Below, in pieces: positions 2,397-62,576 of a DNA stretch of 64,000 nucleotides (position 1 is the stretch's first letter; the number at the start of each line of letters is the position of its first letter). The stretch covers positions 58,237,775 through 58,301,774 of the forward strand of contig OW121744.1 in the NCBI GenBank assembly GCA_933228675.1, given 5' to 3'. This DNA comes from Stomorhina lunata. Lineage: Eukaryota > Arthropoda > Insecta > Diptera > Rhiniidae. The translations under genes and the position numbers were made by a program. Below the pieces are notes generated by a model, which saw nothing but the letters and a program-made list of their open reading frames with translations, was not told the origin of the DNA and made no database searches.

Positions 2397-5300
2397 CTAA
2401 TTTGGTTAATAATTTTGAAACGCATAGTTTTTTTTTATTTTTTTGGTTAAGAAACGAAATTAAACAAAAAATTTAATTAAACGAACAGAAAATTAAAATA
2501 AATATATATTTTTTTTTTGGAAATTAATAAAACATTTTTTTTTTAAAGAAAAAGTAAAGGATTTTAATATGCAGTGATTGAAAAATGGGGAAAGGGATAA
2601 AAGTTTTAAATAATTGGTTTATTATATTGTCGATTGTTTAACTTACACAAAGCGAAATCCATTTTCCTTAAAGGTGATAAAAGGGAATTCGTTGTATTTG
2701 TTGTTGTACCAATGGTATCCAAAGGTGACTCCATGGAACTGTTGAAATTTTCATGTGCATCAAGACTATGAAATGATGGAAAAATGAATAATTATTATAT
2801 AACAAAGAGTCTTTTCATAAATGTCCAAAAAATTAATATAAATTATAAAAAAAACGTTGCTATAACAATTGAAATTACCTGTGCAAACGTGTTAAATCCT
2901 TAAATGTTTTCATGGGCTTCGTTCTAATGTCCATGCTTATGCCACTATCAATTGACGATCGTTTCGAAAAACGACTGCTGTTGGGTGGACTTTGATTACT
3001 GTAAATGAAATATATTTATTTAATAATCCATTGACAATAAGATGAAAAAGAGAAGTAATGTGTGTTATTTTTAGAGGTATAGAACTTCGAATTGAAATAA
3101 AACACAAGAAAATCGTTTTAATGTCCATCAATTTGGCTTTATTGGAAGGATAATTTTATGCCATTAATGTTTAAATATCATTTCGGGCATGTGGCCGCCG
3201 CGGCTGGCTCGAATAAAGCCAATTCTACAGGTCCAATTTTCAACTACTTTTTCGAGCATATGGGGCCGTATGTTGGCAATAAAGCCACGAATGTTGGCTT
3301 CCAAGTCCCCTAACGTTTCTGGTTTGTTGGAGTAGACGAGCGACTTCACATATCCCCAAAGAAAATAATCCAGTGGTGTCAAATCGCACGATCTTGGTGG
3401 CCAATTGACAGGTCCATTCCACGAAATTATGCGCTCATCGAATGTTTCCTTCAATAAATCAATTGTGACGTGCGCTGTGTGGCATGTAGCGCCGTCTTGT
3501 TGGAACCACAACTCATCCACATTCATGCCATCCAAGTGGGGAACAAAGTAGTCGGTTATCATGGCTCTATACCGGTCTCCATTTATGGTAACTGACTCTC
3601 CAGCATTATTTCGGAAGAAGTGTGGCCCAATGACTCCACCAGCCCATAGAGCACACCAAACAGTCAGTTTTTGTGGATGTAATGGCGTCTCAAAGGTCTC
3701 ATGTGGATTCTCTTCACTCCAAATGCGGCAATTTTGCTTGTTGACGTAGCCATTCAACCAAAAATGAGCCTCATTACTGAACAAAATTTTGCGATGAAAA
3801 TCAGCATCGAGATCAATCTCATTTTCGGCCCATACACCAAAATCACGACGCATTGCATGGTCTCGCGGCTTTAATTCTTGCACAAGCTGGATCTTGTAAG
3901 GTCGCAAGCCAAGATCTTTGCGCAAAATCTTCCATAAAGTTGATGGACAAAGCTCCAATTGCTGTGCACGGTGGCGAATCGATTCATTCGGGTCCTCTTC
4001 AACACTTTGCTCTACAGCGGCAATTGTTTCTTCGGTGCGCACTGTTCGACGTCGCTGCGGATGCGTATTATCACATAGAGTAAACGTAGTTCGAAAACGA
4101 TCCATGGTTAACCGAATTAATTGCTCTGATGGACGATTATGTCGACCATAAAATGGACGGAGCTTGCGGTAAACTTCGCGAACTGAACCATTATTTTCGA
4201 AATAAATTTGCACGATTTGCAAGCGTTGTTCTTTTGTCAACCTGTTCATGATGAAATGGCAAACCAAACTAAATATTAATCACTTGACAGCTGACAAAAT
4301 GGCCTCCAGTTAAAAAAGTGATGCCAACTTAAAGTTCTATACCTCAATAAAAAACACCCGATACAATTACGACATAAAAATTATATGGACAAAAAAGTAA
4401 ATATACATCGTCGAATACGACCCCCTGATGCCGCCTACACTACTATGTTCATATGTTAATCGACTATATAATTTTTAAATTTTGTCACAATCAGTCTTTT
4501 TCGACAACGGGTATAGAGCTAAGCCTAAGTATAAACTTATTGACACCATCAACCTCGCCTCTTTGGTACAGGTAGTCACTGAAGATTTATGGCTTCATTG
4601 TAGAATATTACAGCAATTTCAAATTTCCGGAAGTAACAACAATAACAGGCAACAAGGATTGACTTTTGTTGCCATCTACAATATGATTAATAATTGAAAA
4701 GGCAACTGAGTTTCTGTTTCCTGTTATTAGTTGACGTATGGCAACTGCCATTTTGGCAATAGTTGGTTTCGTTTAGTGAATATAGATCATCCACATCATG
4801 GCATGTCGCCATTATCGTGCAGTCGTTCGCGTATGATATCACTTCTACTATTAATTTAACCGTCAAGCGATGTTACAGAATCCTTCAATAATGCTTAACC
4901 ATCCAAAGCGATGCTATTTTGATGTTAATGCTTCAAAACCTCAAGACCCACAGTTTTTAACATAAGTAATTAATATGTCTCTTAGAACTATGGTAATACC
5001 CTTGGCGTAGAAGTTGGGTAAAGTGGTATCATTATTAAAACCTGAGAAAAATAAGAACCCAGGAGAATCATGCAGGCCAATCATCTCTCTGTCATCTATA
5101 GCAAAGACTCCCACCGAGTCGGATGCAACATCACCAGCTGCATCACATTAACATGGATTTTATAAAAAACACAGTCCAACTATTAAGATGACTGCCATCA
5201 TCACAAATATATGTCGTTCATCCATATAGGCATTTGACACGGTCAGTCATAGAACCCACTTTGAAGAAATTACCCATACAAGTCTCCCAAATTCCATCAA

Positions 5301-8300
5301 AAGATGGGTTGTAAGTATGTGTAGCCGCAAGTCATTTGTAAAGTTTAGAGCAGACCTATCCATTTGTGGTAAAAAGATTTTAAAGCTCTTATGGTCAGTG
5401 TTGCCAGATTTTAATTTTTCTTCACATATTCGAGCAGTCTTAATATAATCGAGCAAAAAATTCGAATCTGGCAGCACTGACTTTGAATAGTTCACTAGCT
5501 TTGTGAGCGGGAAAAACATAGTTAAATCTCGGTCATACATAGTGTGTCGGTGTGAAAGCTCAAAAGCTCTTTTGTAAAAGTTCGCACATTGTGCTGTTGG
5601 GCTGGACGGCTCCGGCTTATAGACTAAAAGTCCAAATTTAAGAAACTTTTTTACTACTAGGAAACTGCAGCTTTTACCAGCCAAATCATAGCAACGCTCT
5701 TCACCATTTAAGCAAAGGAACTACAGCTTGAATTAAATGTCTTAGTCGACGATGGTAAAATTCCGACAAAAACCTGCCCAAAAATATTGTGAGTGATATT
5801 CGACAGCTTATACTCGTTCTCAGGACATGCCACTGCAAGTTGCGATAAATAACGGTGTAGGAATAAGTCCCTCCGATGGCAAAGAAATCCTACATGTGGC
5901 GAATAAAACTATTGGTCGGTCAGTGGCAAATTATGCTGCACCAATGTGGTGTCTAAATTTGACTGAAAAGCTGTGGAAAAACTCCAGAGCTGTCAAAATG
6001 CAACCCTTAGTACCGACTGCTTAAAATGTCCTCAGAATCCCATCTAAATGAAAAGACGAAGGTCCTACCACTTAAGAAACATATCCAAATGTAAACAAGG
6101 CAGTTCCCTCTGGGATGTCATCGCAGTCATCTAAACCACCATCCAACAGAGTTAAATCCCATTTGGCATGTCAAAAACGACCTTCGTGATATGCGAAAGC
6201 ACACCATCCAGCTGCTCAATATCACCTCATACAAAGCAGCTCTGAAACACATTCATAAAAACATGGTAACATCGACCATAACTAGCACCAGTACGACCGT
6301 TCTTTCACAAGACCTCTGCTGGTTCAAGATCTGAGCGATCTGAGTGCTAATGGAATGAGGGATATCGGTATGAAGAATAAACTCTCATTCCCTCACTCTC
6401 ATTCTACTTATTTTCCTGACAGCGGGTATAATGAGACTTCATACTGACAGATTAAGGATACACGCCAGGAACTCGTCTAGGTGTTTTAACATCAGCATGG
6501 GTATTCCGTGGGGGCAAATTACAACTTATGGTAGAAGGCCAATACACGGCATGCGGTTACAGGCGGTCATAGTAATGCCAGTATTTTATGCATTTGTTTA
6601 CAAAAATATTCATATAAAAAATATGTAATTAAATCTGGCAGCATTGAAAAAATCTGCCGCGCAGAAAAGTAGAATTTTGTTATACTTTTTTCAATTGCCG
6701 CTTCCAATTTGACAGATCCAAAAACAGCTTATTGCCGCCCGGAGCCTCGTACTTTGGCCTCCCATCTTTAACCGGGCTTTGTTGTTGTAACTGCGATATT
6801 ATTGGTAATGTCACAGAGGTAGCAGTCCTTGGTCGGAATTCTGATATGATGCCCGCTTTCCTACGGAAATGAAAGCGGGCATCATATATGAATTTTGAGT
6901 CAAATATTGACCGTTTCAGCTATATTAAACTCAATGATTTCTGTAGCGATCAAAACAAATTTTATTAAGGAAAGCTTTACATAGCGAATGTTTTCTAAAG
7001 GAAAGCTTTGGATGGCGAATGCTTTCTATAAGAGATCTTTCGATATTAAAAGTTTTCTATAGGAAAGCTTTCGATTATGTTTCTATAGGAAAGCTTTCCA
7101 TATTAAAAGTTTGATTTGGAATGATTCTATATGAAATCTTTTGATATTCAAAGTTTTATGGAGAATATCAAAAGTTTTCTATAGAAAATCTTTCCACATC
7201 GAAAGTTTATTATTAGGAAGCTTTTCGAAATCAAAAGATTTATATAGGAAATCTTTAGATATTGGCATTTTTATATTGTAAAGCTCTGAATATGGAATGC
7301 TTATAATAGAAAGCTTTGGATATTAAAAGTAACCTTTAGGAAATCTTTTGATATACATAAATGGTTTTTAATCCGAAATATTTTGACGACAAATGTTTTA
7401 TATGAGAAATCTTTTGATATTGAAAGTTTTCTATAGAAAATCTTTCAATATCAAAAGTTTGGTATAGGAAGGAAACCTTTTGACATCGAAAGTTATATCC
7501 GGAAAGTTTTCGAAATGTAATGTTTTTGATTAAAAGCTTTTTATATTTAAAGTTACATATAGGAAAGCTTTGATATTGAACGTTTTTTTTTATAGAAAAG
7601 TTTTATAAAAGAAATCGTTCGATATCGAAAGTTTATTATAGGAATGCTTTCGACATTGAAAGTTTTTATTAATAAAACTTTAGATAAATAATCAGGGGTG
7701 TCATAGAAACCAATTTCATTGGTATTGGTTTTGAAAACGACAAAAAATTAAATTGGTGTCATGAATTCCAATATTATTGTTCGAACTACATTTTCTATTG
7801 GTTTTATGTGTCACAGAAAATAATATTATTGGTTTAGTACTGGAAATAAACCAAGCAACTTACAGTTAACAGATTTCATTTCAAAATTGGTATATCTATT
7901 TAAAACAAAGGCGTTACTGACCAACTGGTGCCTTTTCAGCCTTGTGGGGGATAAAAAAGGGTAAATTCAGTAACGATATGATTCCCAAACTAAAAACAAT
8001 AGAACTAAAACTTAAATCGAGTTTGGATCAGCTACAAAAATAACAGTACAAGTGGTAAGTAATTTTCGAAAAAAAGGGGAGAAAAAGAGAAAATTTTTTT
8101 TGGTACTTTTTAGCTTTAATTTTCAAATAAAAAGAGATGGGTGAAAAGTTTACATAGAATTTGTTATCATGTAATAAGATAAAAGCAAGTTTTGGTACTT
8201 TTTTGTGTCTTTGAAATCAATGAACCTTATCGACAAACATAAAGAATTTCAAAAATAGGGAAAATTGTAAGGCTATTCTTTGTGTAAAGGTACTGACGAA

Positions 8301-11300
8301 GCAAATGCATATCAATTTAACGGATATCAAATGTAAGTGACAATCGTCCTTTGATTGACTGTGGTTGGTTTCTTGGTGTAGGTAGATTACATTTTTTCCA
8401 GTCCGCAATTCGGTCATTTCATGATGTTGGGGTATACAAGCTTCATTTATCCAAATAGCAGCGTTTGCTTTATATCTATACCACAAACATCGCAAAAAAC
8501 TGAAAGTTTTTCTTCAAATACGTTTTTTTAATAATTTTTATTTTATTTTTTTATTTGATTTTTGATGTTTCAAAAAAATTTCGAATGAAATAATAAACTA
8601 TTGATTCGAACATTTTGTTTGATTTAAAACCAATAATAACAAAACCGACTTGGTTTCATGACACCAAATATAACCAGTATTGGTTTTCAAAACCGAGAAA
8701 TTTAAAAACTGACTTGGTTTCTATGACACCCCTGAATGACAGTTTTTTTATTGGAAAGCCTTTGCAGTGGAATGTTTTTAGTAGAAAGTTTTAGATATTA
8801 GAAGTTGCCTATAGGAAAGCTTTTAATATTTAATATTTAAGAAATCATTATAGATCCAACCGAAAGCTCTAAGATTTAAAAAATTTCTAATATTTGTTGA
8901 TGCAACGACACATAATTTGGGGAACAAGTTAGAGCTTTTTAAAAAAATACTTAAATAACTAATTTTGATCAAATTGCCTTAAATTTTTGTGAGGTTTTTT
9001 TCAAAAAGAAGTGTATTTGCATTTGATCCCAAATCTGTTACATTTATTTATTAATGTAACAGACCAATTTATTGATAAAAAGCCAAAAAATGTTTGCGGA
9101 GAAACCAAATTCCTCGACGCGTTTCGATGGTTGGTTAAGCCATCTCTTCAGGAGGATTATCCCCAATTTAGACAGATCGAAAACCTCGCATTATTACTAA
9201 ATTTACAAACATAACTATTAAGAATTATGTTCATAAACCAAAAGTAAAAGCGTAGATTATCGACTGAACAAAAACAAACATTTTTCAGTTTTCATCTACC
9301 TTCACTTCCCATTTTTTGTGTTAAATGCATTCACAAAAAAAATCAATTTCAAAAAAGTGTTATTTAGGACCTTTCTACATGAGGCCAACGGTATGTAGAG
9401 TTGGGTTTTAGAACCTATATTTTTATGCATTACGTACATCAACAAATCAATCTTATATATTATATCGAGAGCCTATATTTAATACCGTCTATGAACCAAA
9501 TTTTTTTAAAATCACTTTTTAATGAAAAACTGCTTTTTTTATAATAGTAACACCACTTTCAATAAAAATCAGAGAGAAGAAATCTATTTTAGAACTTTGA
9601 CTTTAATATATTCTAAAAAAAAATAATAATGACTTCTGTTTAAATATTTTGGATATTAACAGTTTTTTGCCCCTCATTAAAAATATTCTATTTGGTTTAT
9701 AGTCGGTATTGAATATAGGCTTACGATATCTTGTAAACTAGAGTTATTTCGTAAAAATTACAATAATGTTTCGATACAGTGTTTCCTAGTTATCTAGTCA
9801 ACATTTCTTATGCCTGAAAATTTTCTTTCCCTGATTTATTCTAAAAGAAAAAAATATTTATTACCTCGACACTGCAACTGGCCTTAAAAATACTCCGTCA
9901 TGACTGCGTTGTGAGTCACTGGAATCGAAAATGGCAAAAGATCGGTGATCATCACTGTCCTCATTACTTAGCTAATAAATAATGAACAAAACATTAGCAA
10001 ATAACAAAATATTTAAATGCAATGAAAGCTATAACTTACCGAATATTTATTAAGATTTATAGACAAACTAGTTAAGGAGCCTCTACTTTGTTTGCGTTGG
10101 CGTTCGTGTTCCAAGCGATAAATTTCCGCAACAATATTTTTGTGACTAAAATCGAAAAACAGATAAGGAAAATTAATGGAAATTATAAAAATATTCGTAA
10201 ATCGAATACCCTTTATGATCGGCCACATCCAAAGGAGTTTGTTGTGAATGATTTTTAATCTTCAAAGCATTTTGATTCCATTTATACAACAAAATGGCAG
10301 TATCCAAATGACCACGAGAACAGGCCCAGGTCTAAATTATATTAACAAAATATTAATTGCAATTTGATATTATACAATTTGTTAACAAATATACTTACCA
10401 AAGGTGTATAGCCATGTGAGTCCTGACTGAAGGCATCTATTTCAGTTTCCAATATAATATGAGGATTTTCTGAACGCCAATTCAGTAGAGCACAAACTAG
10501 TTTATTATAACCCAAAGCAGCTGCTAAATGTAAAAGCGTCATGCCTTTGTAGCCCGAGTTCCAGTTGCTGCTACCTGAAGCACTGCTTTGCCAGGACATT
10601 TTTGTCAATTGATGACAATAATTGACCAATTTTTCCTCTAGATTTCCCTGCAGCGAAAATATTTGTTGCGAAGCCGATACTGTAACAGCCTCACCTTTAG
10701 TTTGCATAGTCTCCTCAATGGTGGTGAGACGATTGTATAGCGAGAACTTGTAAAGGCAATCATTAGTGTTGGCATCAAAGGGCGCCTCTTGACAGGTCAT
10801 CATTTTGTACTCAAACATTACAGAATCTGAGATGACAAAACCATCACAGGATACCTGTAAAGTGGCATAGCCCACTTCATGCGATGGACAATAGCAACGC
10901 AAAACACCCTCTTGCACTAAAACAGTGGGTACTGGATGCGAATCGAATAGTACCGTGTAGTGAGCATCTAGGGACCAAGGGCCCGCTACCAAAACTTTGA
11001 CACCACCCTCCGGATAGGACCAGTCTGGACTGAAATCACATATTTTCAAAACCTTTTTGTCACAACTCAGGGCTGATGTTGAGCTACTATCATACTGGGA
11101 AAGCTGGTGTAAATTTTGGCATGAAGAATTTACACTTAATGCCTCATTAGCAGCCACTCCTGACACAGCTTGTTCCAAGGCCGTATTTGTAAGAGCCTGT
11201 TTATCATCCAAATCTAATTCGGGAAATTCTACCAACATATCAAATGCATCCAAATTGGCAAAGACATCATCAGTATCTTCATCGTCAGCCTCGGCTCCTC

Positions 11301-14300
11301 CGGAAATTTCCGGATCCGGATCACTCTGCACATTTGTTACAATTGCACTACTAACTCCAGTTGAAACTGACGAATTCATAAAGTCCAACGAAGTCAAAAG
11401 CGTACCCTCTCCGGGCATATTCGCTATAAGGGTTCTCTGTATATCTTCATGAGATAAGTCCAGGGTCTCATTAAAGAAACCCAAAGTATCATGCAATTCC
11501 GAGGAGTGTGTTTGCACATGATTGCCGCCATGATGTTGTTGAGTTTGCTCTAAATTTTCAAAACAAATTGTTGAGGAGTTCGAAGTTGGATTGTGTTGTA
11601 AATTATCTGTATTAATGGTTTGTTGTTGTTGGGTACTCGTTAAGGTGCTGCTATTATTGTTATTGGAAGCATCTGAGGATGAGGGTGCACAACCACTGTT
11701 AGTTTTATTACTATTATTTATGTTGTACTCTTCTAATTGATTGTTTCTGTTATTACTATCATTATTGTTAATGTTGGAAGTGTTTATGCTCAAATCGTTG
11801 TTATTAGAAGACATCTGAAAAGGATGATATAATTATTTAACATTAATAATATTAAAATATTTCATATACCAAATTATAAAGTATAAAATACGACCAACAA
11901 TAACAAACTATGGAACAAAAACTAGAATCCTGATAAATACTCGACTGTTTAATAACATCACACGTTATATTTACGGATTACTCAGATTCGAAAGTATATC
12001 TGCTTTCTCAAAACAAATTAATAGAATTTGTTTTGATGACTACCTGAAATTAAGGAACTACTACGGAATCTAACCATCTTTACAAATAACTGACTTTTAC
12101 CACTTCGCTGAGAAATAATTCAATAAGAACCAATTCTATATATTCACCATATATCTCTGGAACCACCTTCCTGCTAGTCTAACTTGGACACTAACTTTTT
12201 ACTGGCATGCTAGGCGGATGACTATTATAGGTCTTTGCGATTTGCAAACGAAAACCAATCCAAAAATATAACTTCTCTTTAATATTCTTTGAAAACTTTA
12301 AGTATTGGAATGTATTCTGATCTGTCCAAGTTTAACGTTTTTATGGCTCTTAAATTAACTTCAATGGCTACCAGGGCTACATGTTCTTACGATGGAACCA
12401 AGTTTAAGATACTTACGTAGAATATATAGATTTTTAATCGATATTAAAGATATATTAAACAAGTTTCATGATTAACCATGTACATACATTAGGGTGGAGC
12501 GAAAAACATATTTTTTTTGAAATTCGATACTCCTGTATTAAAATTGATGCTCTACACCCTAAGGCGATCAGAAAACCAATTTTGTCTTCCTAGTTTAATG
12601 TCCTGAGACATTTGACTTTTATTTCTAGAACCCATTCGTATGGGAAAAGGGAGTTTTTTGGTTTTAGCTAAAGCTAACCAACAAATATTGTTTTTGAAAT
12701 AGTGTGTTTCAAGGAGAATTTCCTAAAATCTGATATATAATTCATGTATGTCCGTACTCCAGGAGAAGGGTTTTTTCGTTTCTTCATTTAATTTTTTTAC
12801 CAAAATTTCCAAATACAGTCGGCAAATTGTGGTACATCAAACTTAGTGTTTTGGCGATATCTCAGGTGTTTATGTAACGACTTGATAAAAACTGCGTGTT
12901 TGGGGGGAGGATTTCCCCAACTCGGATGTATAATTTATTTTTTCTCGTACTATAGAATAATGTTTTTTCTCTTGTTATTTAAAAGTATTTTTCAATCAAA
13001 AATTTTATATTTATATTATATTCATATAGGTCTATATTCCAGGAGCTCCACAGACAGACGGACATCGCCAAATTGAATCTCCTGCCGATTTCATATTTCC
13101 GCCTACTTTAGTCGCTAGACACAAAAATTACAGTCCTAAAGAATTTTTCATATTATGTAATAAAAAACTTAATCTAGACTAATAAATACAAACATTTTTG
13201 AAGAAATGTATACCGTAGACCAGTGAAGCGATTGTACTGGTTCTCGTGTGTTTTATCGCGAATGATTAACAAAAAAAAAAAACTGTAAAAAATGTGGAGC
13301 TAAAAAATATTTTTATGCTCTGTACAATTGTTGTATATATATAACATCTGGCGAAAACAGTCTAGATCGAATGACATGAGCATTTAGAAGATTATTTTTT
13401 GAATAATCACCAAAGAGAGTCTTTTTCGACCAGTGTGGAAGACCAAAAAATGATTTGTCGTCTGCGCAATTAAAAACTAGTCGAAGGAGATTCCCGCTTA
13501 TGCTTTAAAACTTACTGTTTAAAAATATAATAACAAAAAGTATATCAATTCAAAATCAAGCATTTGAGGGACGCTATTTTGCAATCAGATTTTGCACAGT
13601 TAGATGATAAAAAGGTTACTCCTATAGTCTTGGTCTTGAAATACTATTTAACGCGCATAGATAGTGGGTGCTGTAGCTAGGAGGGTTAGCACACCGACTA
13701 CGAAACATAACATATCATTTTTAGCCTAAGTTAGTCCCACGTCGCGGTCGTCGATGAAAAATAAATAATAACGGCAGTCGAAAAAGAATCAAATATGATC
13801 AGAAAATAACAATAATGCTGACTGGGAAGCTCACTTTAAGAGAATTTTGCAAAAATCTGTTACTAGGGGATAAAATGAAGACAAGTTCGAATCAAACAAA
13901 ATGGCGCATAAGTTATTTTAGAGCGTTCTTTATACACTAAATCCCAGTCAGCATTCAGAAGATTATTTTTTGAAAAATCACCCAAATGAGTCTTTTTTAA
14001 CCGGTTTGGAAGACCAAAAAACGCGATTAAAAAACTAGTCGAAGTAGATTCGCGCTTATGCTTTAAAACTTATTATTTAAAAATTGAATAACAAAAAGCA
14101 TATTCATTAAAAATCAAACATTTAAGGGATTGAAATTCGACAATTTGTAACGCTATTTTGCAATCAGATTTTGCGCAGTTAGATGATAAAAAGGTTACTC
14201 CTATAGTGTTGTTTCTGAAATACTATTTAACGCGCATAGTGGGTCAAATATGATCAGAAAATAACAAAAATACTGACTGGGATGTCAGGCCACACATCTC

Positions 14301-26300: not shown

Positions 26301-29300
26301 ACATAAAACCAATAGAAAATGTAGTTCGAACATTAATATTGGAATTCATGAACCAATTTAATTTTTTTGTCGTTTTCAAAACCAATGAAATTGGTTTCTA
26401 TGACACCCTTGATAAATTGGATTTTGATTTTATTTCTTGTATATTTTGTTTTTGTCTTTTCTTTAACAAAGCGCCACCAACCGACTTTGTTAACATCCAA
26501 ATCTCAACTGAATAATTTTAATACTCATTTTTACGAGTTTCATGATCGTGATCATGATATATGAATACAAATGATCGTGATCCACTCCTGGTGGTATAAA
26601 CTGCCTATCTTTGGTTATAAGTTACTTATCAATAACTTTTCCGATATAGCTAAATTGTCAAAAAAGAAATGGTTTAATACTTTAGAAAAACTCATATATT
26701 ATTGGTGCAACAATGAAATGTCTTGTTATTCAACACAATTTTTGAAGGATTCATAAAGAGTACGGCAGAATAAATGTGCTTTCTGCCACCTTTTTCAAAC
26801 ATCTTCGGTCGGTCCCTGGAAACACTTTTTTTATTTGGTCTTAATCTAACATTTAACCCTTACACACAAGAAAAAAAATCGCAAGTGTTTGTTTTCCTTC
26901 CTACTAGTAATTTTGTATGTTTCCGTTAGGAAATCATAATTCATGGCATTTCCCCAAAATTAAAAAAATGAACACGAATAAAAGAAACTAATAAAAACAA
27001 AAGCGATATTTGAGTAAAATGGGAATAAATCCAAAGATAAACAAACATATTCCTTTTACAAACATATCTTAGCCAGAAGAAAACAAAAGGCTACAAATCT
27101 CAGTCATTTTCTTTTTTCTAATTCTTTTTTTTCTACATTCTTCTACATTCTTGTACTTTTTTCTAATTGTATTCTTTATTAAGTCGTAAATTAATTCCAA
27201 AGAAAATCCTAATAAACGACGCTAATTTGCCGGCACTTAAAAACACTTAGGAAATGGAATAAACGAGAATTACAAATGATAATGTTATGGCATATGGTTG
27301 GTCATTTTTGTCGTTATTTAGCGAATTAAGTCGGAAAGTAAACAAAGATAGGGAATGGAAAACAGACATCATATATGTAAAAAAAAGATGGCTAATTGCC
27401 TAATGCTTAAGTGTATGTTCTTATTACTTTTATGTTTACTTAAGAGAAAGTGTTAACATGTAGAAAACTTTTAGATTAACCTTTAGCAAACTAAAAAGTA
27501 AAATCTCATATTTTTTCTTAACACTTGTCCTGTATAATGGGTCAAAATTGCCCAAACGGTTTTTATTGCTTGATATTTTCGCAACTATTCAATTAATGTT
27601 TCTGAAAATTTTGTACTTTTATTTATTTAGCGAATAGTGTATAAATAAAACATATAGATCTCATAGCCCTTTTCAGAACGTCTGTATTAAAAAAGTAACG
27701 TATTTGACATAAGTGGGTCAAAAGTGCCCAATACAAAATAATCAATAAACACATTATATCAAGACTCAGAAATTTTGTTTTATGTTCTCTGTGTAAAAGG
27801 GGATTTACTACCGATCTTACAAATTAGTGTAAATTGGAGTTAACGTATTTTATAACGGGACTATGAGCAGCCACAAGAGAAACGAAAAACGAATTTATTC
27901 AGTAGAAGTGCAAATTTTCACAGTATTAGACTTTTGTTGTTGTTTGTCGGGTTTGTGTTTGTATTATTATTACTATTCATATTTTGGAATAATGAAACCA
28001 GAAGAAATCAGTGCTGTTTTGATGCAGTCAGATCTAGAAGAGGAATCTGCTAATGATGCATCAAGTTCAGATGAAGAAGATTTCGTTTCGGATGTTGGAT
28101 CTGTTTATGATCCTAATATTTCCTTGAGCTCCAGTGAAGAGAATTTCGAAAATCTAGTTTAAGCAAGTTCAGAAACTACGACATACACTTCTAAGAATGG
28201 CAAATATATATGGTCAGATACATCAGCGATACAAGGGGTTGGAAGATCAGCTAAAGAGAACATTATCTATGTCGCCCCTGGCCCTACTCGTTATGCTATT
28301 TCTAGAGCAGATGACATAAAATCTACATTTATGTTGTTTATGCCAAATGAAATAATGAAATTAGTTGTTGACATGACTAACCTTGAGGGTAATTATGAAA
28401 CATATATTGAGAATAAGTCAGTATTCGGATGATTTAGTTCATACTTTTAGGTCAATCGGTGTTTAAAAATGATTGGATACCTGTAGACAATGTCACCATC
28501 GAAGACTACATTGGACTTCTTCTACTGGCTGGAGTATATCGTTCTCATGGGGAAGCATTGGAATCTTTATGGGATGACCATAAAGGCCGACCATTATTCA
28601 AATCAGCTATGAGCTTGAGAAGATTTCAAAATATATCTCGTGTAATCCGATTTGATAAGAAGTCTGATAGAAATGAAAGACGAGCTCGTGATAAAATTAA
28701 GAAAAAATTACAATCCATCTGAATTTGTAACTGTGGATGAGCAGATAGTTCCATATCGTGAACGTTGCCCCTTTAAATAGTACATACCGTCAAAGCCAGG
28801 GAAATATGGTATTAAAATTTGGGCATTGTGCGATGCAAAAACCAGTTATGCGTGGTCTTTACAGGTATATACCGGCAAAGGCAGAAACTGTAAGCCAGAA
28901 AAAGATCAAGGGCGACGTGTCGTCTTAGATCTTATCAAAGATTTAAAAGGACATAATGTTACCTGCGATAATTTTTTTACTTCCCATGAATTGGGTATTG
29001 ATTTGTTGAAACGAGATATAACAATGGTCGGTACTGTAAGAAAAAATAAAACGTTTTTACCTCCAAAATTTTGCAGCTAAAAGGTAAACCAGAGAGCTAT
29101 GCACATTTTCTATTTGACAATCAAAACAAAACTACAATACTTGGATATGTACCTAAAAAAAATCGATCTGTTTTTTTACTTAGTACATTACACCACAATA
29201 AGGAAATAAGAGCAGATACTAAAAAGCCGGAAATTATTCACTTTTACAATGAGACTAAAGCTGGAGTTGATGCATTAGATCAATTGGCAAGAACATATAC

Positions 29301-32300
29301 TTGTAAGAGAAGAACAAATACATGGCCTCAGGCATTATTTTACAACATTTTGGACATATCAGCCTACAATGCATACGTGGTTTTTCTTAACATTAATCCG
29401 GACTGGAATTGCAGTAAAAAATATAAGCGTCGCATTTATTTGGAGGAATTGGGCTTAAGTTTAATTACGGTAGAGATGTCAAGCAGAACGAATTTACCGC
29501 GAGGTAGTGATGCTAAATTATTTGTCAACAGCGTTCAAAATGACCTAGCAACAGGCTCAAAAGTAAAAAATTTGAAAAGAGCTCGCTGTTTCTTTTGCCC
29601 AAATCGGTCGAATAGCACAAAATATTCTAGTAAGTGTTCGCAATGTAACAAATTTATATGTAAAAATCATTCGGAGGCTAAAATAACATGTCATGTATGT
29701 AAAAAAATTAATAAATAAGTAATATTTAGTATTGGGAAAAATTGACCCACAAATGTTACATTTTATTTCTTAAGCGCAGGATAAGGGCTAATTTCATATT
29801 TTACACAAATTTTATAAGTGTCTAATCATATTAAAGGGGTCTTAGGCTCTTTGGAAAATTTTAGAAAAAATGGATCTACGTATTTTATTAACTGATCCTA
29901 GTTAGGGGTTTTGGAAAATTATTGATCAAACAATAATTAAGATGATTGGAACAATAATTAAGATGGCAAAACACATAAACGCACAAACAAACATAAATTC
30001 CATGAGCACGTGTGTGTGCCTTAGCTTTTTCTCATTGGATAGTCGTCTCCATTGTTGTTTCTGAATTAGAGTAAAAGCGGTATACTCTCTTTTATATGGG
30101 ATTTTTCAAAACGACCATACGGGAAATCAATGTATGGAAGTGCAACATCTTTATATTATAAAGTCTTTGATTGCAACAAACAAATTTTAAAAAATATTTC
30201 CATATTTAACTCAAAATCTGTTAGTAAAACTGAAACCGAAGTTACATTTTTTGTCACTTCTTAGATTTTGACATTTAAAACGCAAACATGACTTATTCTA
30301 ACTAAACTTAATTCAGCATGGCCACTATAGCTTTGGAAATTGAATGCAACTTCTGTTTCTTATTTAAATTTGTATATATGTTATTGTTAGTACATTTCAT
30401 TATTTCTATTTACAATAAAGCTTACCTCAGTGCCTTGTACTTTAAGTTTCATATGATCTTCTCTGGTAGTCTTGCCATCTTTACGTTTTTTCCAGCAATA
30501 ACCGTCACGTCGATAGCGCACCTTTTTCCGGGAATACAATAACAGAGAGCCACTCTTCGGTCTACAATATTTAATAAATTTAGTTTTTATAAAAAATTAA
30601 GTCAAACATATAAAAAAGAAATTTATATATAAAATAAAGCTAAACAGTTTGTTTTTAAACTCTCAGACATTTTTATACCCACCATCAAAAAGAATGGGAG
30701 GTATATTGTGATTGTCATTCCGATTGTAATTTCCTTAATATTGGCTCAAAAATCAAAAACGGTATATATTCTGAATCCTTATGAAATTCTAAGACGATTG
30801 AGCGATGCCCGTCTGTCTGTCTGTTGAAACCACGATAACGCCTAAACGAAGGAGCTAGCTCACTGAAACTTAGTAGAAACATTCGTCATCTATAAGAAAA
30901 TTTTGGTATTGAAATTGGGCAAAATCGGTTAACATTTGACCATAGCTCCCGTATAACCTCGTCTAGACTAATCGCATATTTGCTAATAAATAACAAATTA
31001 TAACAGCTATGATGACAAAATTTGGTATCTAGAAGTTTTACATAAGCACTAGGCAGCATATAAAATCTCATCGAAATCGGTTCACATTTAAACATAGCTC
31101 CCATATAAAAAACTTACGAAAACAGCCTAAATTCCACTTGAAATTCACTTAAATGCCAATTAATAATAAACTGTAAAAGCTTTGGCCACTAAATTTAGCA
31201 CAAGGAAGTCTTATTATGCCAGTGTGCAAAATTTTGTCACAATCCGTCACCATTTGACCATAACTCCCATATAAAAAACTTACGGAAACACAAAAATACC
31301 AAAAGAAAAGGGGGTTTATGTCCGTCTGTCATTTATATAAAAGCGGAATAGCGCCTTAACTAAAAGGGCTACAGCAACAAAATTTTACAAAAGAAAGTCT
31401 TATGTGAATGCCAGCCAGTGTGCAAAATTTCGTCACAATTAGTCACCATTTGACCATAGCTCCCATATAAAAAACTTACGGAAACACAAAAATACAAAAA
31501 GAAAAGGAGATTTATGTCCGTCTGTCCGTCAGATAAAAGCGCGACAGCTCCTTAACTACAAAAGCTAGAGAGACAAAATTTTACAAAAGTATTTTTGATA
31601 TGTAACAAAAGTTGTGTACTGAAGATGGGCGAAATCGGTTCACATTTAGTTAGAGCTCCCATATAACCCAGCCCCGGGAAACACATGAATGCTGATAAAT
31701 TGAGTACAATTGTAATAGCTATGACGACTAAATTTAGAATAAAGAAGTTTTATGCAACTATTGGTCAGTATATCAAATTTTATAGGAATCGGTCCATATT
31801 TGACTATAGCTTTCATATAAAAAACACTCCTGGAAACCAAAAAAAAAAAAAAAAATGAAGCAAAGGCCAGTTAAAAGCTATTAAATTAGAAACTGTGACA
31901 GCTATTGCCACTAAATTTTGCAAAAATAAGCTTTATATAAATACCAGATAGTGTGTGAAATTTTGTTACAATCGGTCAACATTTGGCTATAATTCTTATA
32001 TACATATATTACATCCCCTTTTTATATCTACAATCAAAAAGATTAAAAAAGACAACAGCATATTAAGATTATGTATATGGCAGATGCATTAGGAACTCCT
32101 AGCAAAATATATGGACCCGTCGTATTATTATCAACTTATTTATCCTAACTAAATATTAAGCTAAACGAAAAGTATTTAACAATTTATTAATGTAGAACCA
32201 TACCCGGTTACGATAACGAATTTTTTTCAAAGTAAATAAATACTAGGGAAACCACTTACACACTTTTGATTGTTGAACTATAAAGCTACTGCAACCGAAG

Positions 32301-35753: not shown

Positions 35754-36611
35754 TTTATTACATAAAAAAAAACTTAATTGAAGCAATTGAATGAGCCCTT
35801 CTGTTTAATGTTAATGTAACGTTTACACAAATCCTCATTTCCTAAGCACTTCCTTTCAAGAAATATTACAATATTTGTTCAAAATAAATAATTTTGCATG
35901 AACTTTTTATATTCCCATAAAACTTTCAACCTCGACCTTGTATGTATTTTCTATAAATCTCAATTTGTAATGTTTAGGTTTTCGTTTTTTTTTTTTGAAA
36001 ACGTAAAAAAAATTGTGCTGAATTTTATAAATTTTTTATAGATTTTTATGAAGGTCTTTTATACTGTAAAATTTATTTTATTGGTAAAGACGTGCGTAAA
36101 CATGTCTAACATCTGTAGATTATAGCAAAATGTCATAAATATTTGAGAAAAAAATGGTATATTTCTAAAAATGCACAAACATTCACATAAATATTGTATC
36201 GTTCAAATAAAGCAAAATCACTGAATCATTGAAACGCTGATTGAATCAGAAGTTTCTACTTATATTGAGATTCTACTTTGTAGAAGACGGAAACGGAAAT
36301 AGATTTTAAACATGTTTTACAAGTGTTTTTTTAGATCTATCATTTGTTATTCTAGATTTATTTAAGCCTTTTTTCATACAGTAAATACTTGTACATAACC
36401 GAAGTTAGGATACATTCTACTAAATATTACTTATATTTACACAAATATGTATGTGTAAAAGTATTCAAATATACTAATTTACTAGATGTTACACTGTTAA
36501 AAAATAAAATATGGGAAATACTAAATATTAAAACCTTTAGAGCTTTTATTTCAACTTGTTCAAAATGCACTGTGAAGCTAAATTAATATCTTTCGATTAC
36601 TAAACTTGAAA
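35754..36611. other. AT-rich sequence, nothing recognised
   Basis: No exon, RNA gene or repeat boundary seen on either strand. Confidence 0.5.
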
Positions 36612-37345
36612 AAAACAAGAAAGTGTTATAGTCGGTCAAGCCCGACAAAACGATTCCCTTCACCACTAAGTTCAAAAGTGTTCTTTTTCCTGTATAAAGA
36701 CAAATATTGGCTAAATTTTGCCATCATACAAACATTTTCTCAAAACTTATATATTTAAGCTGTTTCCATCATTTGGACTAATATGAGAGATAGGGTCAAA
36801 TGTGGACCGATTTCCTCGAAATTTGACAAATTGATTACAGTTTTCACAAAAATTATTTATGCAAAAAATAGACTCAAAATTCTATTATCTTCAGATTTAT
36901 AAGTTTTTTTAGAGATTTTTTCTCATTAGTGCGTTTTGACATAAGAGTTTGTATGGGAGCTATGGCCAAATGTGGACCGATTTCAACAAAATTTGGTACA
37001 GTGATTTTGGTTTATATAAACAGTATTTGTTTTAAACTTCATGAAAAAATATTTATATTTGTGGCCAAAATATCAATTCCGGAAAGTGGGACCTATGGGA
37101 GGTACTATAAATAATGGATCTATTTTGAGAAATTTCAATAGCAAAAAAAATAATCTATGCAAATTTCATCAAATTATCTTTAGAATTGCGACCTGTACTT
37201 TGATTACAGCCGTCCAGCCAGACGGATGGACTGACATCGCTAAATCGACTCAGAAAGCGATTCTAACCCTATTGGTATACAAAAATGTGGGTCTAAGACA
37301 AATATTTCTATGCGTTACATACATCAGCACTACTTTATAATAACT
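36612..37345 (-). mobile_element. INE-1/DINE-1-like element, 5' truncated
   Basis: In minus orientation it has the 3' end ACAAGAAAGTGTTATAGTCG with GGTCAAGCCCGACaa hairpin at the left, GCCAGACGGATGGACTGAC tract, and TACATACATCAGCAC at the right, where it stops before the ATACCC head. Sister of 32476-33258. Confidence 0.75.
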
Positions 37346-37496
37346 GGTCGGCGCAAAGAAACAAAACAAAAACTTAATAGCCAGAGTTGTCGTTTTTTTT
37401 TATACTTTTAACTAAAATATGTGTTTTTTTTAATGTGCAGTTCTAACATTTGAACAAGAAAAAGTTTTCTACTCCATTTTTTTAAATATTTTTGTA

Positions 37497-38340
37497 TACA
37501 AATTCTATAGAAAATTTTTTGATCATAAATTTGACTATAAAAATTTTTTTTATCAAAAATTTTTCTATCAAAAATTTTTCTATGGAAAATTTTTTTATCA
37601 AACATTTTTCTATAGAAAATTTTTGTATCAAAAATTTTTCTCTAGAAAATTTTTTTAACAAAAATTTTATTATAGAAAATTTTTTATCAAAAATTTTTTT
37701 ATAAAAAATTTTTTTATCAAAAAGTTTTCTATAGGAAATTTTTTTATCAAAAATTTTTTGATCGAAAATTTTTCTATAAAAAATTTTTTTTATCAAAATT
37801 TTTCTTTAGAAAATTTTTTTATCAAAGTTTTTCTATAGAAAATTTTTTTATCAAAGTTTTTCTATAGAAAATTTTTTTATCGAACATTTTCCTATAGAAA
37901 TTTTTCTATAGAAAATTTTTTTTATCAAAAATTTTTCTATAGAAAATTTTTTGATCAAAAATTTTTCTATAGAATATTTTTTGATCGAAAATTTTTCTAT
38001 AGAAAATTTTTTGATCAAAAATTTTTCTAAAGAAAAATTTTTTTTATCAAAAATTTTTCTAAAGAAAAATTTTTTTTATCAAAAGTTTTTCTATAGACAA
38101 TTTTTTTAACAAAAATTTTTTTATCAAAAATTTTTTTATCAAAAATTTTTTATCAAAAATTTTTCTATAGACAATTTTTTTAACAAAAATTTTTTTATCA
38201 AAAATTTTTCTATAGGATTTTTTTTATAAAACATTGTTTTAATTTTTTTTTGTCAAAAATTTTTTATCAAAAATTTTTCTATAGACAATTTTTTTAACAA
38301 AAATTTTTTTATCAAAAATTTTTCTATAGAAGTTTTGAAA
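37497..38340. repeat. 30-bp palindromic tandem array
   Basis: Units of 30 bp alternate two dyads, TTTTCTATAGAAAA and TTTTTTGATCAAAAA, clearest from 37920 to 38040. Others vary by small indels. The array is cut by a DINE at 38345-39121 and resumes weakly at 39122-39240 and 39630-39710. Open frames here are repeat translation, not genes. Confidence 0.88.
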
Positions 38341-38344
38341 ATTT

Positions 38345-39121
38345 TTATACCCTTCACCACCATAGGTGGAAGGGTATTATAAGTTTGTGCTGATGTATGT
38401 AACGCATAGAAATAGACCCATCTTTTAGTATAGTACCAATAGGCTTAGAAGGACTTTCTGAGTCGATTTAGCGATGTCCGTCCGTCCGTCTGGCTGGCTG
38501 GACCCCCATGTAAACCTTGTAATCAAACTACAGGTCGCAATTCTAAAGATAGTTTGATGAAATTTGCCACAGGGACCATGGGGACCATGGCTATTGAAAT
38601 TCGTCAAAATCGGTTCATTACTTATGGTACCTCCCATAGGTCCCACTTCCCGGAATTAATATATTGGCCACAAATATCAATATTTTTTCATGAAATTTAA
38701 AACAAATACTGCTTATGTAAACTAAAATGACTGTACCAAATTTCGTTGAAATCGGTCCACATTTGACCATAGCTCCCATACAAACTCTTCATACAAACGC
38801 ACTGAGACAAAAAATCACTAGAACGCTCGTATATCTAAAGATAATGAAAATTTTGAGTTTAGTTTTTGCATACATAATTGTTGTAACAACTGTAATCAAT
38901 TTGCCAAATTTCGAGATAATCGGTCCACATTTGACCCTAGCTCTCATATAAGTCCAAATGACGGAAACAGCTTAAATATATAAGTTTTGAGAAAATGTTT
39001 GTATGATGGCAAAATTTAGCAAATATTTATCTTTATACAGGAAAAATAACACCTTTGACCTTAGTGGTGAAGGGTATCGTATGGTCGGGCTTGGCCGACT
39101 ATAGCGCTTTCTTACTTGTTT
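38345..39121 (+). mobile_element. INE-1/DINE-1-like element inside the 30-bp array
   Basis: Full-length: ATACCCTTCACCACCATAGG at the 5' end, GTCCGTCCGTCTGGCTGGC tract, GGTCGGGCTTGGCCGACTAT and CTTTCTTACTTGTT at the 3' end. 777 bp. Flanks on both sides are array sequence. Confidence 0.85.
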
Positions 39122-39277
39122 GATATAAAAATATTTTTATCGAAAATTTTTACACAAAAATATTTTATCGAAAAATTGTCTATAAAATATAATTTTTATC
39201 GATCAATTTTCTAAAGAAAAGTATTTTTTATTAAAAAATAACAAAATTGCCGGGATGTAAATATTATTCAAAAAAAA

Positions 39278-39628
39278 TGACTATTCGCATTTGATCCCAA
39301 ATCTGTTACATTTATTTATTAATGTAACAGACCAATTTATGGATAAAAAGCCAAGAATTGTTTGCGGAGAAACCAAAATTCCTCGACGCGTTTCGATGGT
39401 TGGTTAGGCCATCTCTTCAGGAGGATTATCCCCAATTTAGACAGCTCGAAAACCTCGCATTAGTACTTATTTTACGAACAAAACCAATCAGAATTATGTT
39501 CATAAACCATAAGTAAAAGCGTAGATCATCGACTGAACAATTTTTGGCTTTTTATCAATAAATTGGTCTGTTACATTAATAAATAAATGTAACAGATTTG
39601 GGATCAAATGCGAATAGTCATTCATTTT
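39278..39628. repeat. Hammerhead-bearing repeat, copy 2, with long inverted ends
   Basis: 39278-39350 and 39543-39628 are inverted copies (GACTATTCGCATTTGATCCC; CTGTTACATTTATTTATTAA), so this copy is framed by roughly 70-bp inverted repeats. The body matches 9018-9272. It lies within remnants of the 30-bp array. Confidence 0.8.
39380..39425 (-). ncRNA. Candidate hammerhead ribozyme, copy 2
   Basis: Minus-strand core identical to copy 1: TCCTC, CTGAAGA, GATGG, CCATC, GAAA, CGCGTC, GAGGA. Loop II differs (CCTAACCAA against CTTAACCAA). All conserved catalytic bases and both 5-bp stems are kept. Confidence 0.7.
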
Positions 39629-40155
39629 GAAAAAAGTATTTTTATTAAAAATTTTTCTATAAAAAAATTTTGGATCGAAAATATCTAAAAAAAAATATTT
39701 GAAAAATATTCCCAATATTTACAAAAATATTTCCAATGTTTACAAAAGTAAAAATGTCGTGGCAACAATGTTCGAGATTATATTTCTTTGTTCTCTCGAA
39801 CCATGTATTTTGTTGCTATAAATTGATTTTTGATTTGTTTCTTGCCGATTTTGTTAACATCCAAATTCCAACTGAATGATTTTATATTTGGTATTTACGA
39901 AAATTACAGAAGTGTATCGGCTTCTGGTGGTGTGGGCTGCTTACTCCTGCTTATAATACCCTTTCCACCAATTGTGGTGAAGGGTTTAAAAATACTTTGA
40001 TTTACAAATGTTTCCAAAATAATATGTCATTCTAAAGCGTAATCTGTTTTCTTTTAGTTGTTAAAAAAAAAAATAAAATCGAATACAAACCGGCTGAGCT
40101 ACGAGTCGGTAATGTGACAAAGCTAAAATCGTTTGTTTTTTACTACGAGTATTAA

Positions 40156-42590: not shown

Positions 42591-42905
42591 CGGGTAGGGA
42601 AGTCTCCTGGGCCAAATGGCATACTAGCACTGGTCTTTAAGCAGGGCTCTTCGACGTTACCTCATCCATTGCCCAACCTTTTTAATTATTTATTCCATTT
42701 TAGATAATTTTTATGTGTTGGAAGGTATCTAATGTAACGCCAATTCCCTGCTTTTGGTGTAGGAAACCATTTCTCCCGGTTCATATCGAGCTTTCTCAGA
42801 GATCGCACTTTAAGAGTTGTTATAGATGCGATATAATCCGACGAGTTCAAGATTAAGTCGGGGGTAACACAAGGCTTCGTTATTTCTCCTACACTTTTTC
42901 TGATT
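42590..42905 (+). pseudogene. Non-LTR reverse transcriptase relic, N-terminal part
   Basis: Patches: SGKSPGP-like GREVSWAKWH region (42592), then near 42790 SFLRDRTLRVVIDAI and SDEFKIKSGVTQGFVISPTL then FLIFI, which is the RT GVPQGSVLSPTLF block. The frame stops where a DINE begins at 42905 and the next RT motif appears only at 45157. Confidence 0.7.
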
Positions 42906-43221
42906 TTTATACCCTACACCACCATAGGTGGAAAGGGTATTGTAAGTTTGTGCTGATGTATGTAATGCATAGAAATATTTGTCTTAGTATACCAATAGGC
43001 TTAGGAATCATTTTCTGAGTCGATTTAGCGATGTCAGTCTGTCCGTCCGTGTGGCTGGCTGGACGGCCGGACCCCCATGTAAACCTTGTAATCAAACTAC
43101 AGGTCGCAATTCTAAAGATAATTTGATGAAATTTTGAACAGATAATTTTTTTTGATAATGGGACCATGGCTATTGAAATTCGTCAAAATCGGTTCATTTT
43201 TTATAAACAAATACTGCTTAT
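42905..43221 (+). mobile_element. INE-1/DINE-1-like element, 5' part (split by a Helitron)
   Basis: TATACCCTACACCACCATAG head, GTCCGTCCGTGTGGCTGGCT tract, and the block ending AACAAATACTGCTTA. The sister element at 38345 continues GTAAACTAAAATGACTG, which here appears only after 44758. Confidence 0.8.
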
Positions 43222-44757: not shown

Positions 44758-45156
44758 CTATAAACTTAAATCACTGTACCAAATTTCGTTGAAATCGGTT
44801 CACATTTGACCATAGCTCCCATACAAACTCTTCTTTAAAAACGCACTAAATGAGACAAAAATCACTAAAACGCTGGTAAATTTAAAGATAATGAGAATTT
44901 TAAGTTATTTTTTTAAGCCAACATAATTTTTGTAACAACTGTAATCAATTTGCTAAATTTCGAGACAATCAGTCCACATTTGACCCTAGCTCTCATATAA
45001 GTCCAAATGATGGAAACAGCTTAAATATATGTTTTGAGAAAATGTTTGTATGATGGCAAAATTAAGCAAATATTTTATACAGGAAAAATAACACCTTTGT
45101 CCTTATTGTTGAAGGGTATCGTATGGTCGAGCTTGACCGACTATAGCACTTTCTTC
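44758..45156 (+). mobile_element. INE-1/DINE-1-like element, 3' part
   Basis: It continues 42905-43221: AAATCACTGTACCAAATTTC to GGTCGAGCTTGACCGACTAT and AGCACTTTCTT. Confidence 0.8.
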
Positions 45157-56290: not shown

Positions 56291-56564
56291 AGAACTATTT
56301 CTTTGGACAACCTTTTCTACTGGGACTATTTTAGTGTACTTTGACATTCTTCATGTATTTGACAACCACTTGTAGCCCGACTTCTATCAGAGGCTTATAG
56401 ATGAGCGCAAAGACTTCTGGAGGATGTTTGTTCCACATATGGACATTATAGTTTAAAAAAAGTATTTTCTCCAGTGGCCAATCAAAATCAAACTATTTTA
56501 GTATAATCTTATATTCCGATTATTGTATTGAACTCAGAATTCACTTTCATACTTCAATTACATA

Positions 56565-57136: not shown

Positions 57137-57141
57137 ACAAA

Positions 57142-62009: not shown

Positions 62010-62576
62010 AAGCTTTCGTTTTGGTTTTGGTTATTATATTAAACTTTTGTTGACAAAATTTCAATAATAAAAGCTTACCTATAAATGTTTTCTTTTTTCG
62101 AAAGATTTCTTACATAAAATATTTGCCATCAAATTAATTCAGGTATAAAACTTTCCGATATAAAAATATTAATATCAACACCTTACCTATAGATAACTTT
62201 AATTAAGCTTTCTAAAAAACAGTTTATAACAAAAATTCCTATATAAAACACTCGATGTCGAAAGGATTCCTATAATAAACATTCAATATCGAAAGATTTC
62301 TTATCTAAAACTTTTCTAAAGAAAACTTTTGATATAAAAAGCTTTCAATTAAAAACATTCCATATTGAAAGTTTTCCGAAATAAAACAATTTCCTATATA
62401 CAACTTTCGATGTTAAAAGCTGTTCTATAATAAACTTTTGATATTAAAAGATTTTCTATAAAAAATCTTTCTTTATCAAAAGATTTCTTATATAAAACTT
62501 TTGTCGTCAAAATATTTCGGATAGAAAAATCTGTTGATATAGATTTTCTATAGAAAAAAAAAAAACTTTCGTATCG
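62010..62576. repeat. Degenerate edge of the 31-bp palindromic array
   Basis: AAACTTTCGATATTAAAAG-like and TTTCCTATA-like units with increasing divergence to the left; same orientation as the clean array. Confidence 0.75.

What the first reader, a model, noticed from the sequence alone, without database searches (positions are those of the whole stretch)
9111..9156. Complete hammerhead ribozyme core in a fly dispersed repeat (copy 1, minus strand)
CTGAAGA, GAAA and a GTC cleavage triplet are spaced exactly as the hammerhead consensus needs, with perfect 5-bp stems I and II and the canonical G-C pair next to the CUGANGA box. Stem III is just the self-complementary ACGCGT, as in minimal hammerheads that are thought to act as dimers. 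Such motifs are known in Penelope-like elements and retrozymes; here I see no Penelope reverse transcriptase, so the host element is unidentified.
Basis: partly seen in the sequence, partly recalled or inferred. Interest (0 to 1): 0.8.

Follow-up and report, generated by a model that had tools for sequence, protein, structure and literature searches.

The report
Fly mini-Penelope element with hammerhead ribozyme
The motif is a small self-cleaving-type RNA sequence inside a short, protein-less jumping element that has spread in many near-identical copies through a fly genome and carries the insertion marks of Penelope retrotransposons, a kind already known to carry such ribozymes.

Summary
On the minus strand at 9156-9111 there is a full minimal type I hammerhead core, with a sister copy at 39425-39380. 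No core with both 5-bp stems arose in 150 shuffled windows. Rfam has no hit.

The host repeat can be named. Copies from the own genome show two families of non-coding head-to-tail units, A (469 nt, the finding) and B (485 nt). Both bear Penelope-like element (PLE) marks: an ATG in stem II, variable 5' ends, two main 3' ends about 40 nt apart (the PLE "tail"), and head-to-head twin inserts (26 of 82; tail-to-tail 0). Of 21 twins with both ends classed, 17 have one short and one long tail.

The A and B ribozymes are 43/46 identical against 281/454 elsewhere. In 109 copies the fixed core changes about five times less than loop II.

Best reading: a young, non-autonomous PLE derivative moved in trans. 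No helper was found; that search did not complete. Cleavage is untested. A fall in insert lengths at the upstream cut site hints at ribozyme-made RNA ends (post hoc).

The parts
9000..9311 (-). Family A element, copy 1: single 5'-truncated copy ending at the short 3' end (...CACTTCTTTTTGAA)
   Evidence: all 40 scored genome copies match the 285-nt query at 99-100% (687 first-look candidates, 40 scored)
9111..9156 (-). Minimal type I hammerhead core; predicted cleavage between 9116 and 9115
9141..9143 (-). ATG inside stem II, stopped at codon 3 (ATG GCT TAA); 28 nt from its A to the C before the cut
   Evidence: Sequence; [quoted passage not shown]
9034..9063 (-). Hairpin TCTGTTACATTAATAAATAAATGTAACAGA, 14-nt arms, 93% complementary
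   Evidence: I9
9000..9013 (-). Short 3' end shared by most copies (inferred site where reverse transcription starts)
39226..39631 (.). Family A copy 2: head-to-head twin insert; long-tailed arm 39226-39540 (-) and short-tailed arm 39536-39631 (+, end read by eye); flanking repeat AAAAGTATTTTT(T)ATT by eye
39380..39425 (-). Hammerhead core of copy 2, same core and stems, one change in loop II

Best explanation
The motif is the minimal, dimer-type hammerhead ribozyme of a non-autonomous Penelope-like retroelement family (A, 469-nt head-to-tail unit) that is young and repeated many times in this fly. The unit keeps the cis signals of a PLE pseudo-LTR: the ribozyme with an ATG in stem II, and two internal sites about 40 nt apart where reverse transcription appears to start. 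Its typical form has no open frame there, so it must be copied in trans by a PLE enzyme. Shown: core, stems, conservation of core against loop, tandem units, two main 3' ends, 5' truncation, head-to-head twins with mostly unequal tails, a related family B. Inferred: transcripts run through more than one unit; the PLE enzyme nicks AT-rich DNA, starts cDNA at an internal site and often primes on both strands, and the two cDNAs join head to head; [quoted passage not shown]
For: Core and 5-bp stems, 0 of 150 shuffles. Genome copies: 687 first-look candidates, 40 scored, all 40 at 99-100%. Tandem units in L008, HHR spacing 462 and 469 nt, and in L036/L037 (one place), 485 nt. Two main 3' ends, short and about 40 nt longer. 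82 insertions: 55 single, 26 head-to-head, 1 complex, 0 tail-to-tail; 21 of the 26 twins have both ends classed: 17 short+long, 4 short+short, 0 long+long (one-sided permutation P 0.003 for unequal twins; the end classes were set). Like traits are described for PLEs: tail on one of the inverted pLTRs, TSD, head-to-head (PMC3846280); two adjacent internal RT starts, cutting and extension on both strands, ORF start at stem II (PMC11167929). A versus B: HHR 43/46 identical, rest 281/454 columns, Fisher p 3e-6; the 3 differences are N7 and two loop II sites. Fixed core 5/1090 against loop II+N7 27/1090 changes, p 1e-4. Twin arms share a private variant in L019 and L042.
Against: No PLE reverse transcriptase carrying this ribozyme was found: the GIY-YIG search gave 2 matches, a SLX1-like host gene (my reading) and a PLE-like endonuclease fragment with no clear similarity to A or B; the protein search with P0011 did not complete. 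No Rfam hammerhead hit. Predicted folds prefer other pairings: monomer -16.5 against -10.2 kcal/mol for stems I+II, dimer -40.7 against -28.9; the 65-nt ribozyme stretch is no more stable than its shuffles (z 0.11). Stem I 5' strand (13 changes in 545 site-copies, 8 at one base) and stem III (12 in 654) vary nearly as much as loop II. Target repeats scoring 10 or more: 22 of 82 inserts against 7.7% by chance, blurred by AT-rich repeated targets. Five of 55 single ends and 5 of 26 twins did not fit the two end classes. No RNA data.
Confidence: 0.85

Rival explanations
1. A metazoan retrozyme proper: multimeric transcripts self-cleave, monomers are circularised, and the RNA circle is the template; the copying enzyme is a LINE or PLE.
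For: Head-to-tail units of 469/485 nt close to the 150-450 bp given for animal repeats with type I HHRs (PMC7229834); units inside one insert can be identical over the compared segment (L036, L048); inserts longer than one unit exist.
Against: The HHR is the minimal PLE type without a usable stem III, unlike the canonical type I HHRs of most invertebrate retrozymes (PMC7229834). The two tails and unequal head-to-head twins are PLE marks. A circle does not predict the fall in lengths just past one unit plus 116-118 nt (post hoc).
Confidence: 0.3
2. Dead sequence: the core survives because copies are young or because the stretch once began a reading frame; the ribozyme has no role and the element moves by its promoter and 3' signals alone.
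For: [quoted passage not shown] Folds do not favour the hammerhead. Stems I and III vary nearly as much as loop II. At least two copies (first unit of L008; the B-like copy in L021) lack the codon-3 stop, so an ancestral frame is possible.
Against: A and B differ in 38% of the other aligned columns (gaps counted) but at only 3 free positions of the HHR; the fixed core changes about five times less than loop II within families. The sequence just downstream, which a frame would also hold, is not conserved to the same degree.
Confidence: 0.15
3. Head-to-head twins arise by self-priming on an antisense template (proposed for Adineta Penelope), not by priming on both DNA strands.
For: Proposed in PMC3846280 (passages). 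Inverted copies of one locus are a little closer to each other than copies of different loci (A 1.5% against 2.1%, B 1.3% against 2.6%; some of these are separate insertions).
Against: The two arms mostly end at different 3' sites (17 of 21), and L055 joins A and B sequence in one insert, which suggests more than one template.
Confidence: 0.2
4. Chance match to the hammerhead consensus in an AT-rich repeat.
For: The bare CTGANGA...GAAA pattern is as frequent as chance; no Rfam hit.
Against: Full descriptor 0 of 150 shuffles; selective conservation between and within families.
Confidence: 0.03

Closest known systems
Small hammerhead variants of Penelope-like elements (Cervera & de la Pena 2014; Lunse, Weinberg & Breaker 2017: seen only as citations, not held; described in PMC6155905 and PMC7761336, passages read)
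   Same: Type I core without a usable stem III, in PLE pseudo-LTRs and as dispersed motifs, thought to act as dimers.
   Different: Here the host unit is a 469-nt non-coding repeat without a PLE reading frame.
Poseidon PAc of Anolis (PMC11167929; parts 1, 2 and 4 of 4 read)
   Same: Start codon at stem II, cut 26 (PAc) or 28 nt (here) downstream, two adjacent internal RT starts giving the optional tail, AT-rich targets, both strands used.
   Different: PAc encodes RT and GIY-YIG endonuclease; the paper sees no top/bottom difference in start site in vitro, whereas 17 of 21 twins here have one short and one long end.
Adineta vaga Penelope families (PMC3846280; passages read)
   Same: Head-to-head inverted pLTR, a 31-bp tail optional on one of the inverted pLTRs, short TSDs, a case where pLTRs sufficed for integration in trans.
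   Different: Elements with reading frames; the word hammerhead does not occur in the main text (0).
Metazoan non-LTR retrozymes (PMC7229834; part 1 of 3 of Results, Discussion and passages read)
   Same: Small tandem non-coding units with type I HHR, low GC, PLEs proposed as movers.
   Different: Theirs carry canonical HHRs or amphibian types that act as dimers; ours is the PLE minimal type and has PLE tails.
Short non-autonomous Penelope elements of heliconiine butterflies (PMC6685494; two passages read)
   Same: Short, non-autonomous, recently accumulated Penelope elements in insects.
   Different: No ribozyme or end structure is described in the passages read.

Membership tests
PLE-type minimal hammerhead ribozyme | CUGANGA...GAAA...UH core with stems I and II | tested here: met
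PLE-type minimal hammerhead ribozyme | Stem III absent or only a short self-complementary segment | tested here: met
   ACGCGT at 9122-9117, no loop; nested dimer structure computed, not the minimum-energy fold
PLE-type minimal hammerhead ribozyme | Self-cleavage, as a dimer | not testable with these tools
   Needs in vitro transcription
Rfam hammerhead families | Covariance-model score above gathering threshold | tested here: not met
   None in the window, none at E<=10 in 8900-9400, none at E<=5 in L008, L010, L013, L021, L032
Penelope-like element, autonomous | ORF with telomerase-like RT and GIY-YIG endonuclease | tested here: not met
   Units A and B are 469 and 485 nt, frame from the stem II ATG stops at codon 3
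Penelope-like element, cis structure | Head-to-tail partial tandems of pseudo-LTR units | tested here: met
   L008, L036/L037
Penelope-like element, cis structure | Optional 30-40 nt tail at the 3' end | tested here: met
   Short and long ends; singles 41 short, 9 long, 5 other
Penelope-like element, cis structure | Head-to-head inverted copy, tail on one of the two | tested here: met
   26 of 82 inserts head-to-head; 17 of 21 classed twins unequal
Penelope-like element, cis structure | Target site duplication | tested here: inconclusive
   22 of 82 with score >=10 against 7.7% null; AT-rich repeated targets; L014 and L018 look clear by eye
Penelope-like element, cis structure | A helper PLE in the same genome sharing these signals | tested here: inconclusive
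   GIY-YIG search: 2 matches, neither linked to A or B; protein search with P0011 did not complete
Metazoan retrozyme | Small tandem repeats (150-450 bp) with type I HHR, no coding capacity | tested here: met
   469 and 485 nt, slightly above the stated range
Metazoan retrozyme | Canonical type I HHR with usable stem III | tested here: not met
   Six-nt palindrome without a loop in place of stem III; loop 1-loop 2 contacts were not tested
Metazoan retrozyme | Abundant circular RNA | not testable with these tools
   No RNA data

The most novel reading that the evidence does not exclude
Genomic inserts record ribozyme action in vivo: the RNA that is reverse transcribed has its 5' end made by hammerhead cleavage in the upstream unit, so that a full-length insert is one unit plus the stretch from the cut to the RT start (585 nt in A, 603 in B). 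Insert lengths fall nearly fivefold at that point in both families together (19 arms before, 4 after), and one B insert (L048) begins exactly at the cut. This would give the so far unknown role of the minimal PLE hammerheads. Against it: only 4 of those 23 arms start within 12 nt of the cut, and no fall is seen at the first cut (7 arms shorter than it, 10 in the next equal stretch, counted from the list), so the downstream ribozyme would have to stay uncleaved.
Probability: 0.25. Interest if true: 0.7.

Novelty: new member of a known kind. Interest (0 to 1): 0.42.

Why it matters
[quoted passage not shown] A young, many-copy, protein-less PLE derivative in a fly gives many clean insertions in which RNA ends, RT start sites and two-strand priming can be read from genome sequence, so both questions become testable.

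Tried and rejected
Rfam at gathering and relaxed E-values gave nothing hammerhead-like. I read this as the models not covering so short a stem III; that is inference. Exact-pattern scan of viral contigs: 0. A MITE or tRNA-SINE was not favoured because 5' ends vary and the 3' ends are of PLE type; no test for terminal inverted repeats was run. An apparent cluster of 5' ends at phase 176-177 in A is not used: my query began near there, so the sample is biased. The HHR-like stretch in L032 after the endonuclease stop has a spare base before stem II, so I do not count it. Identification of the fly stops at "nearest listed relative Lucilia cuprina, 88% over MED31". Papers: searches were 30 of 862 listed; 20 of 38; 20 of 28; 11 of 11; 5 of 5; 10 of 1,990; none of the 10 listed holds "hammerhead ribozyme"; in what I saw no paper describes hammerheads in this fly group. 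Two key papers are not held.

Limits of the counts: loci are the best-scored ones for queries that contain the ribozyme, not a random sample. One search left out L031, L032, L063 (not this element) and L001, L011, L015, L037 (same places as others), plus inserts under 150 bp or cut by a locus end (number not printed). One search removed 5 duplicates by flank, but L052 (same flank as L040 with one change) and the two inserts of L081 (shared right flank) stayed in. may hold a few double counts, its copies are related and its classes were pooled after seeing the rates, so p is optimistic. The test was designed after seeing the lengths. Most twin or tandem comparisons show no private shared variant; L019 and L042 do, and L081 does for two inserts that may be duplicates.

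Full report
What is there. The minus strand at 9156-9111 reads TCCTC-CTGAAGA-GATGG-CTTAACCAA-CCATC-GAA-ACGCGT-C-GAGGA. [quoted passage not shown] A descriptor asking for all of this finds two places in the window, 9151-9116 and 39420-39385, and none in 150 dinucleotide shuffles. The loose pattern alone is not unusual. Rfam finds nothing.

The element. The window lies in a 728-Mb genome held as G000. The closest named match of its MED31 exon is Lucilia cuprina at 88%, so it is a blowfly-like calyptrate. A 285-nt query around copy 1 gave 687 first-look candidates; 40 were scored and all 40 match at 99-100%. The family is therefore young, with at least 40 near-identical copies. Aligned copies give limits of about 9000-9311 for copy 1. 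In L008 three ribozymes follow each other at 462 and 469 nt, so the unit is a head-to-tail repeat of about 469 nt. A second family, B, with a 485-nt unit, was met beside A copies and gave 3821 first-look candidates, of which 40 were scored, at 91-100%.

Penelope marks. The 3' ends of copies fall mainly at two sites, a short one (...CACTTCTTTTTGAA in A) and one about 40 nt further. The 5' ends vary. I parsed 87 insertions, 82 after removing 5 with shared flanks: 55 single, 26 head-to-head twins, 1 complex, no tail-to-tail. Of the 26 twins, 21 have both ends classed: 17 short+long, 4 short+short, 0 long+long; the excess of unequal twins has one-sided permutation P 0.003, with end classes set after seeing the data. 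Singles are 41 short, 9 long, 5 other. Window copy 2 (39226-39631) is such an unequal twin. This matches what is described for PLEs: head-to-head pLTRs with an optional 31-bp tail on one of them (PMC3846280, passages) and two adjacent internal RT start sites, with cutting and extension on both strands (PMC11167929). The lizard element also has its start codon at stem II and its cut 26 bp downstream; here an ATG lies in stem II 28 nt before the cut, but the frame stops at codon 3. Target repeats are only partly clear (22 of 82 at score 10 or more, null 7.7%).

Selection on the ribozyme. Between units A and B the 46-nt ribozyme is 43/46 identical and the rest 281/454 aligned columns (Fisher p 3e-6). 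The three differences are the free N7 and two loop II bases, and only windows overlapping the ribozyme (9 of 455) reach that identity. Among 109 copies the fixed core (CUGA-GA, GAA, C17) has 5 changes in 1090 site-copies, loop II plus N7 has 27 in 1090 (p 1e-4). Copies are related and the classes were pooled afterwards, so p is optimistic. The stems are less tidy: stem I 5' strand 13 changes in 545 site-copies (8 at one C; the variants shown there are mostly C to T, which keeps a G-U pair), stem III 12 in 654, stem II 11 in 1090. In the typical A and B units the frame is closed at codon 3, but the first unit of L008 and the B-like copy in L021 lack that stop, so an older coding constraint cannot be fully excluded.

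Mechanism. Shown: the parts, their conservation, the ends, the twins. Inferred: a PLE enzyme acting in trans copies an RNA spanning more than one unit, starting inside it at one of two sites, and often on both strands of one target. In L019 and in L042 (all three units) the copies of one insert share a private variant, so there they come from one RNA or one source; on average inverted copies of one locus differ a little less than copies of different loci (A 1.5% against 2.1%, B 1.3% against 2.6%). L055 joins A and B sequence, so both families probably use the same machinery. A nested double hammerhead of two units is possible at -28.9 kcal/mol but is not the minimum (-40.7); the monomer is likewise not favoured, and the 65-nt ribozyme stretch is no more stable than shuffles. 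The PAc ribozyme showed no cleavage without its protein, so help may be needed here too.

A possible trace of cleavage. Measured to the short end, most arms longer than one unit stop before, or close to, the cut site of the upstream unit: 19 arms lie within one unit plus the 116-118 nt to the cut (plus 12 nt), 4 in the next equal stretch, where 17.7 would be expected if the decline went on smoothly (Poisson P 1e-4). Sliding the boundary, the difference is largest 5 nt past the cut (18 against 2; 16 against 1 at 15 nt), and L048 starts exactly at the cut. Against this, only 4 of the 23 arms start within 12 nt of the cut, and at the first cut there is no fall (7 arms shorter, 10 in the next equal stretch, from the list). 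The test is post hoc, the sample was drawn with queries that contain the ribozyme, and a transcription start in that stretch would look the same. The query that would settle it was sent repeatedly and not answered.

What is missing. The GIY-YIG search of the genome gave 14 candidates and 2 matches: a SLX1-like host gene and a fragment of another PLE-like element (both names are my reading). That model is a poor probe here: of 4 homologues of that fragment none reached its cut-off. The direct protein search did not complete. So the helper is inferred, not found.

Place among known things. Minimal hammerheads are reported in all available PLE sequences (PMC6155905, passage), PLEs are proposed to move retrozymes (PMC7229834), and short non-autonomous Penelope elements are mentioned in butterflies (PMC6685494). 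This is a new member of a known kind, useful because its many fresh insertions record how it moves.

Noticed in passing
window 10345-11832 (-): Exon-sized open frame with a TIG domain, by recall a CAMTA-like gene; copy 1 lies about 1 kb downstream on the same strand, so the ribozyme may sit in an intron in sense orientation.
   Followed up: partly
window 62055-64000 and 6957-7667: AT-rich array with a 31-bp spacing at 62055-64000 and a stretch about 69-73% similar to it at 6957-7667; by eye, many A and B elements are inserted in sequence of the same kind.
   Followed up: partly
window 36609-39121: About 2.5-kb near-palindrome, 77% self-complementary, with related pieces at 32472-33263, 42903-43204 and 44759-45155.
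   Followed up: no
window 3167-4279 (-) and 50597-51316 (+); 29050-29715 (+); 46798-47349 (+); 47773-48636 and 60008-60661 (-): Open or broken frames that look like DNA transposases; Pfam above cut-off for three of four tested (DUF4817, DDE_Tnp_1_7, Transposase_1), HTH_32 below cut-off for 47773-48636; the first and last pairs lie in 97% and 95% repeats.
   Followed up: partly
window 56532-59058 (+): Non-LTR retrotransposon with endonuclease, RT and RNase H domains in two overlapping frames.
   Followed up: no
L032 1371-1863: PLE-like endonuclease frame (GIY-YIG 29.3 bits) with a long palindromic hairpin at its 5' side and a hammerhead-like stretch about 160 nt past its stop.
   Followed up: partly
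L030 2379 onward: One twin is interrupted by a sequence that looks like a tRNA-derived SINE (by eye and recall).
   Followed up: no
L040, L041, L044, L052, L079, L080: Six loci share the same flanks (L052 with one change) around one B insertion, so that insertion rides in a larger duplicated or mobile sequence.
   Followed up: no
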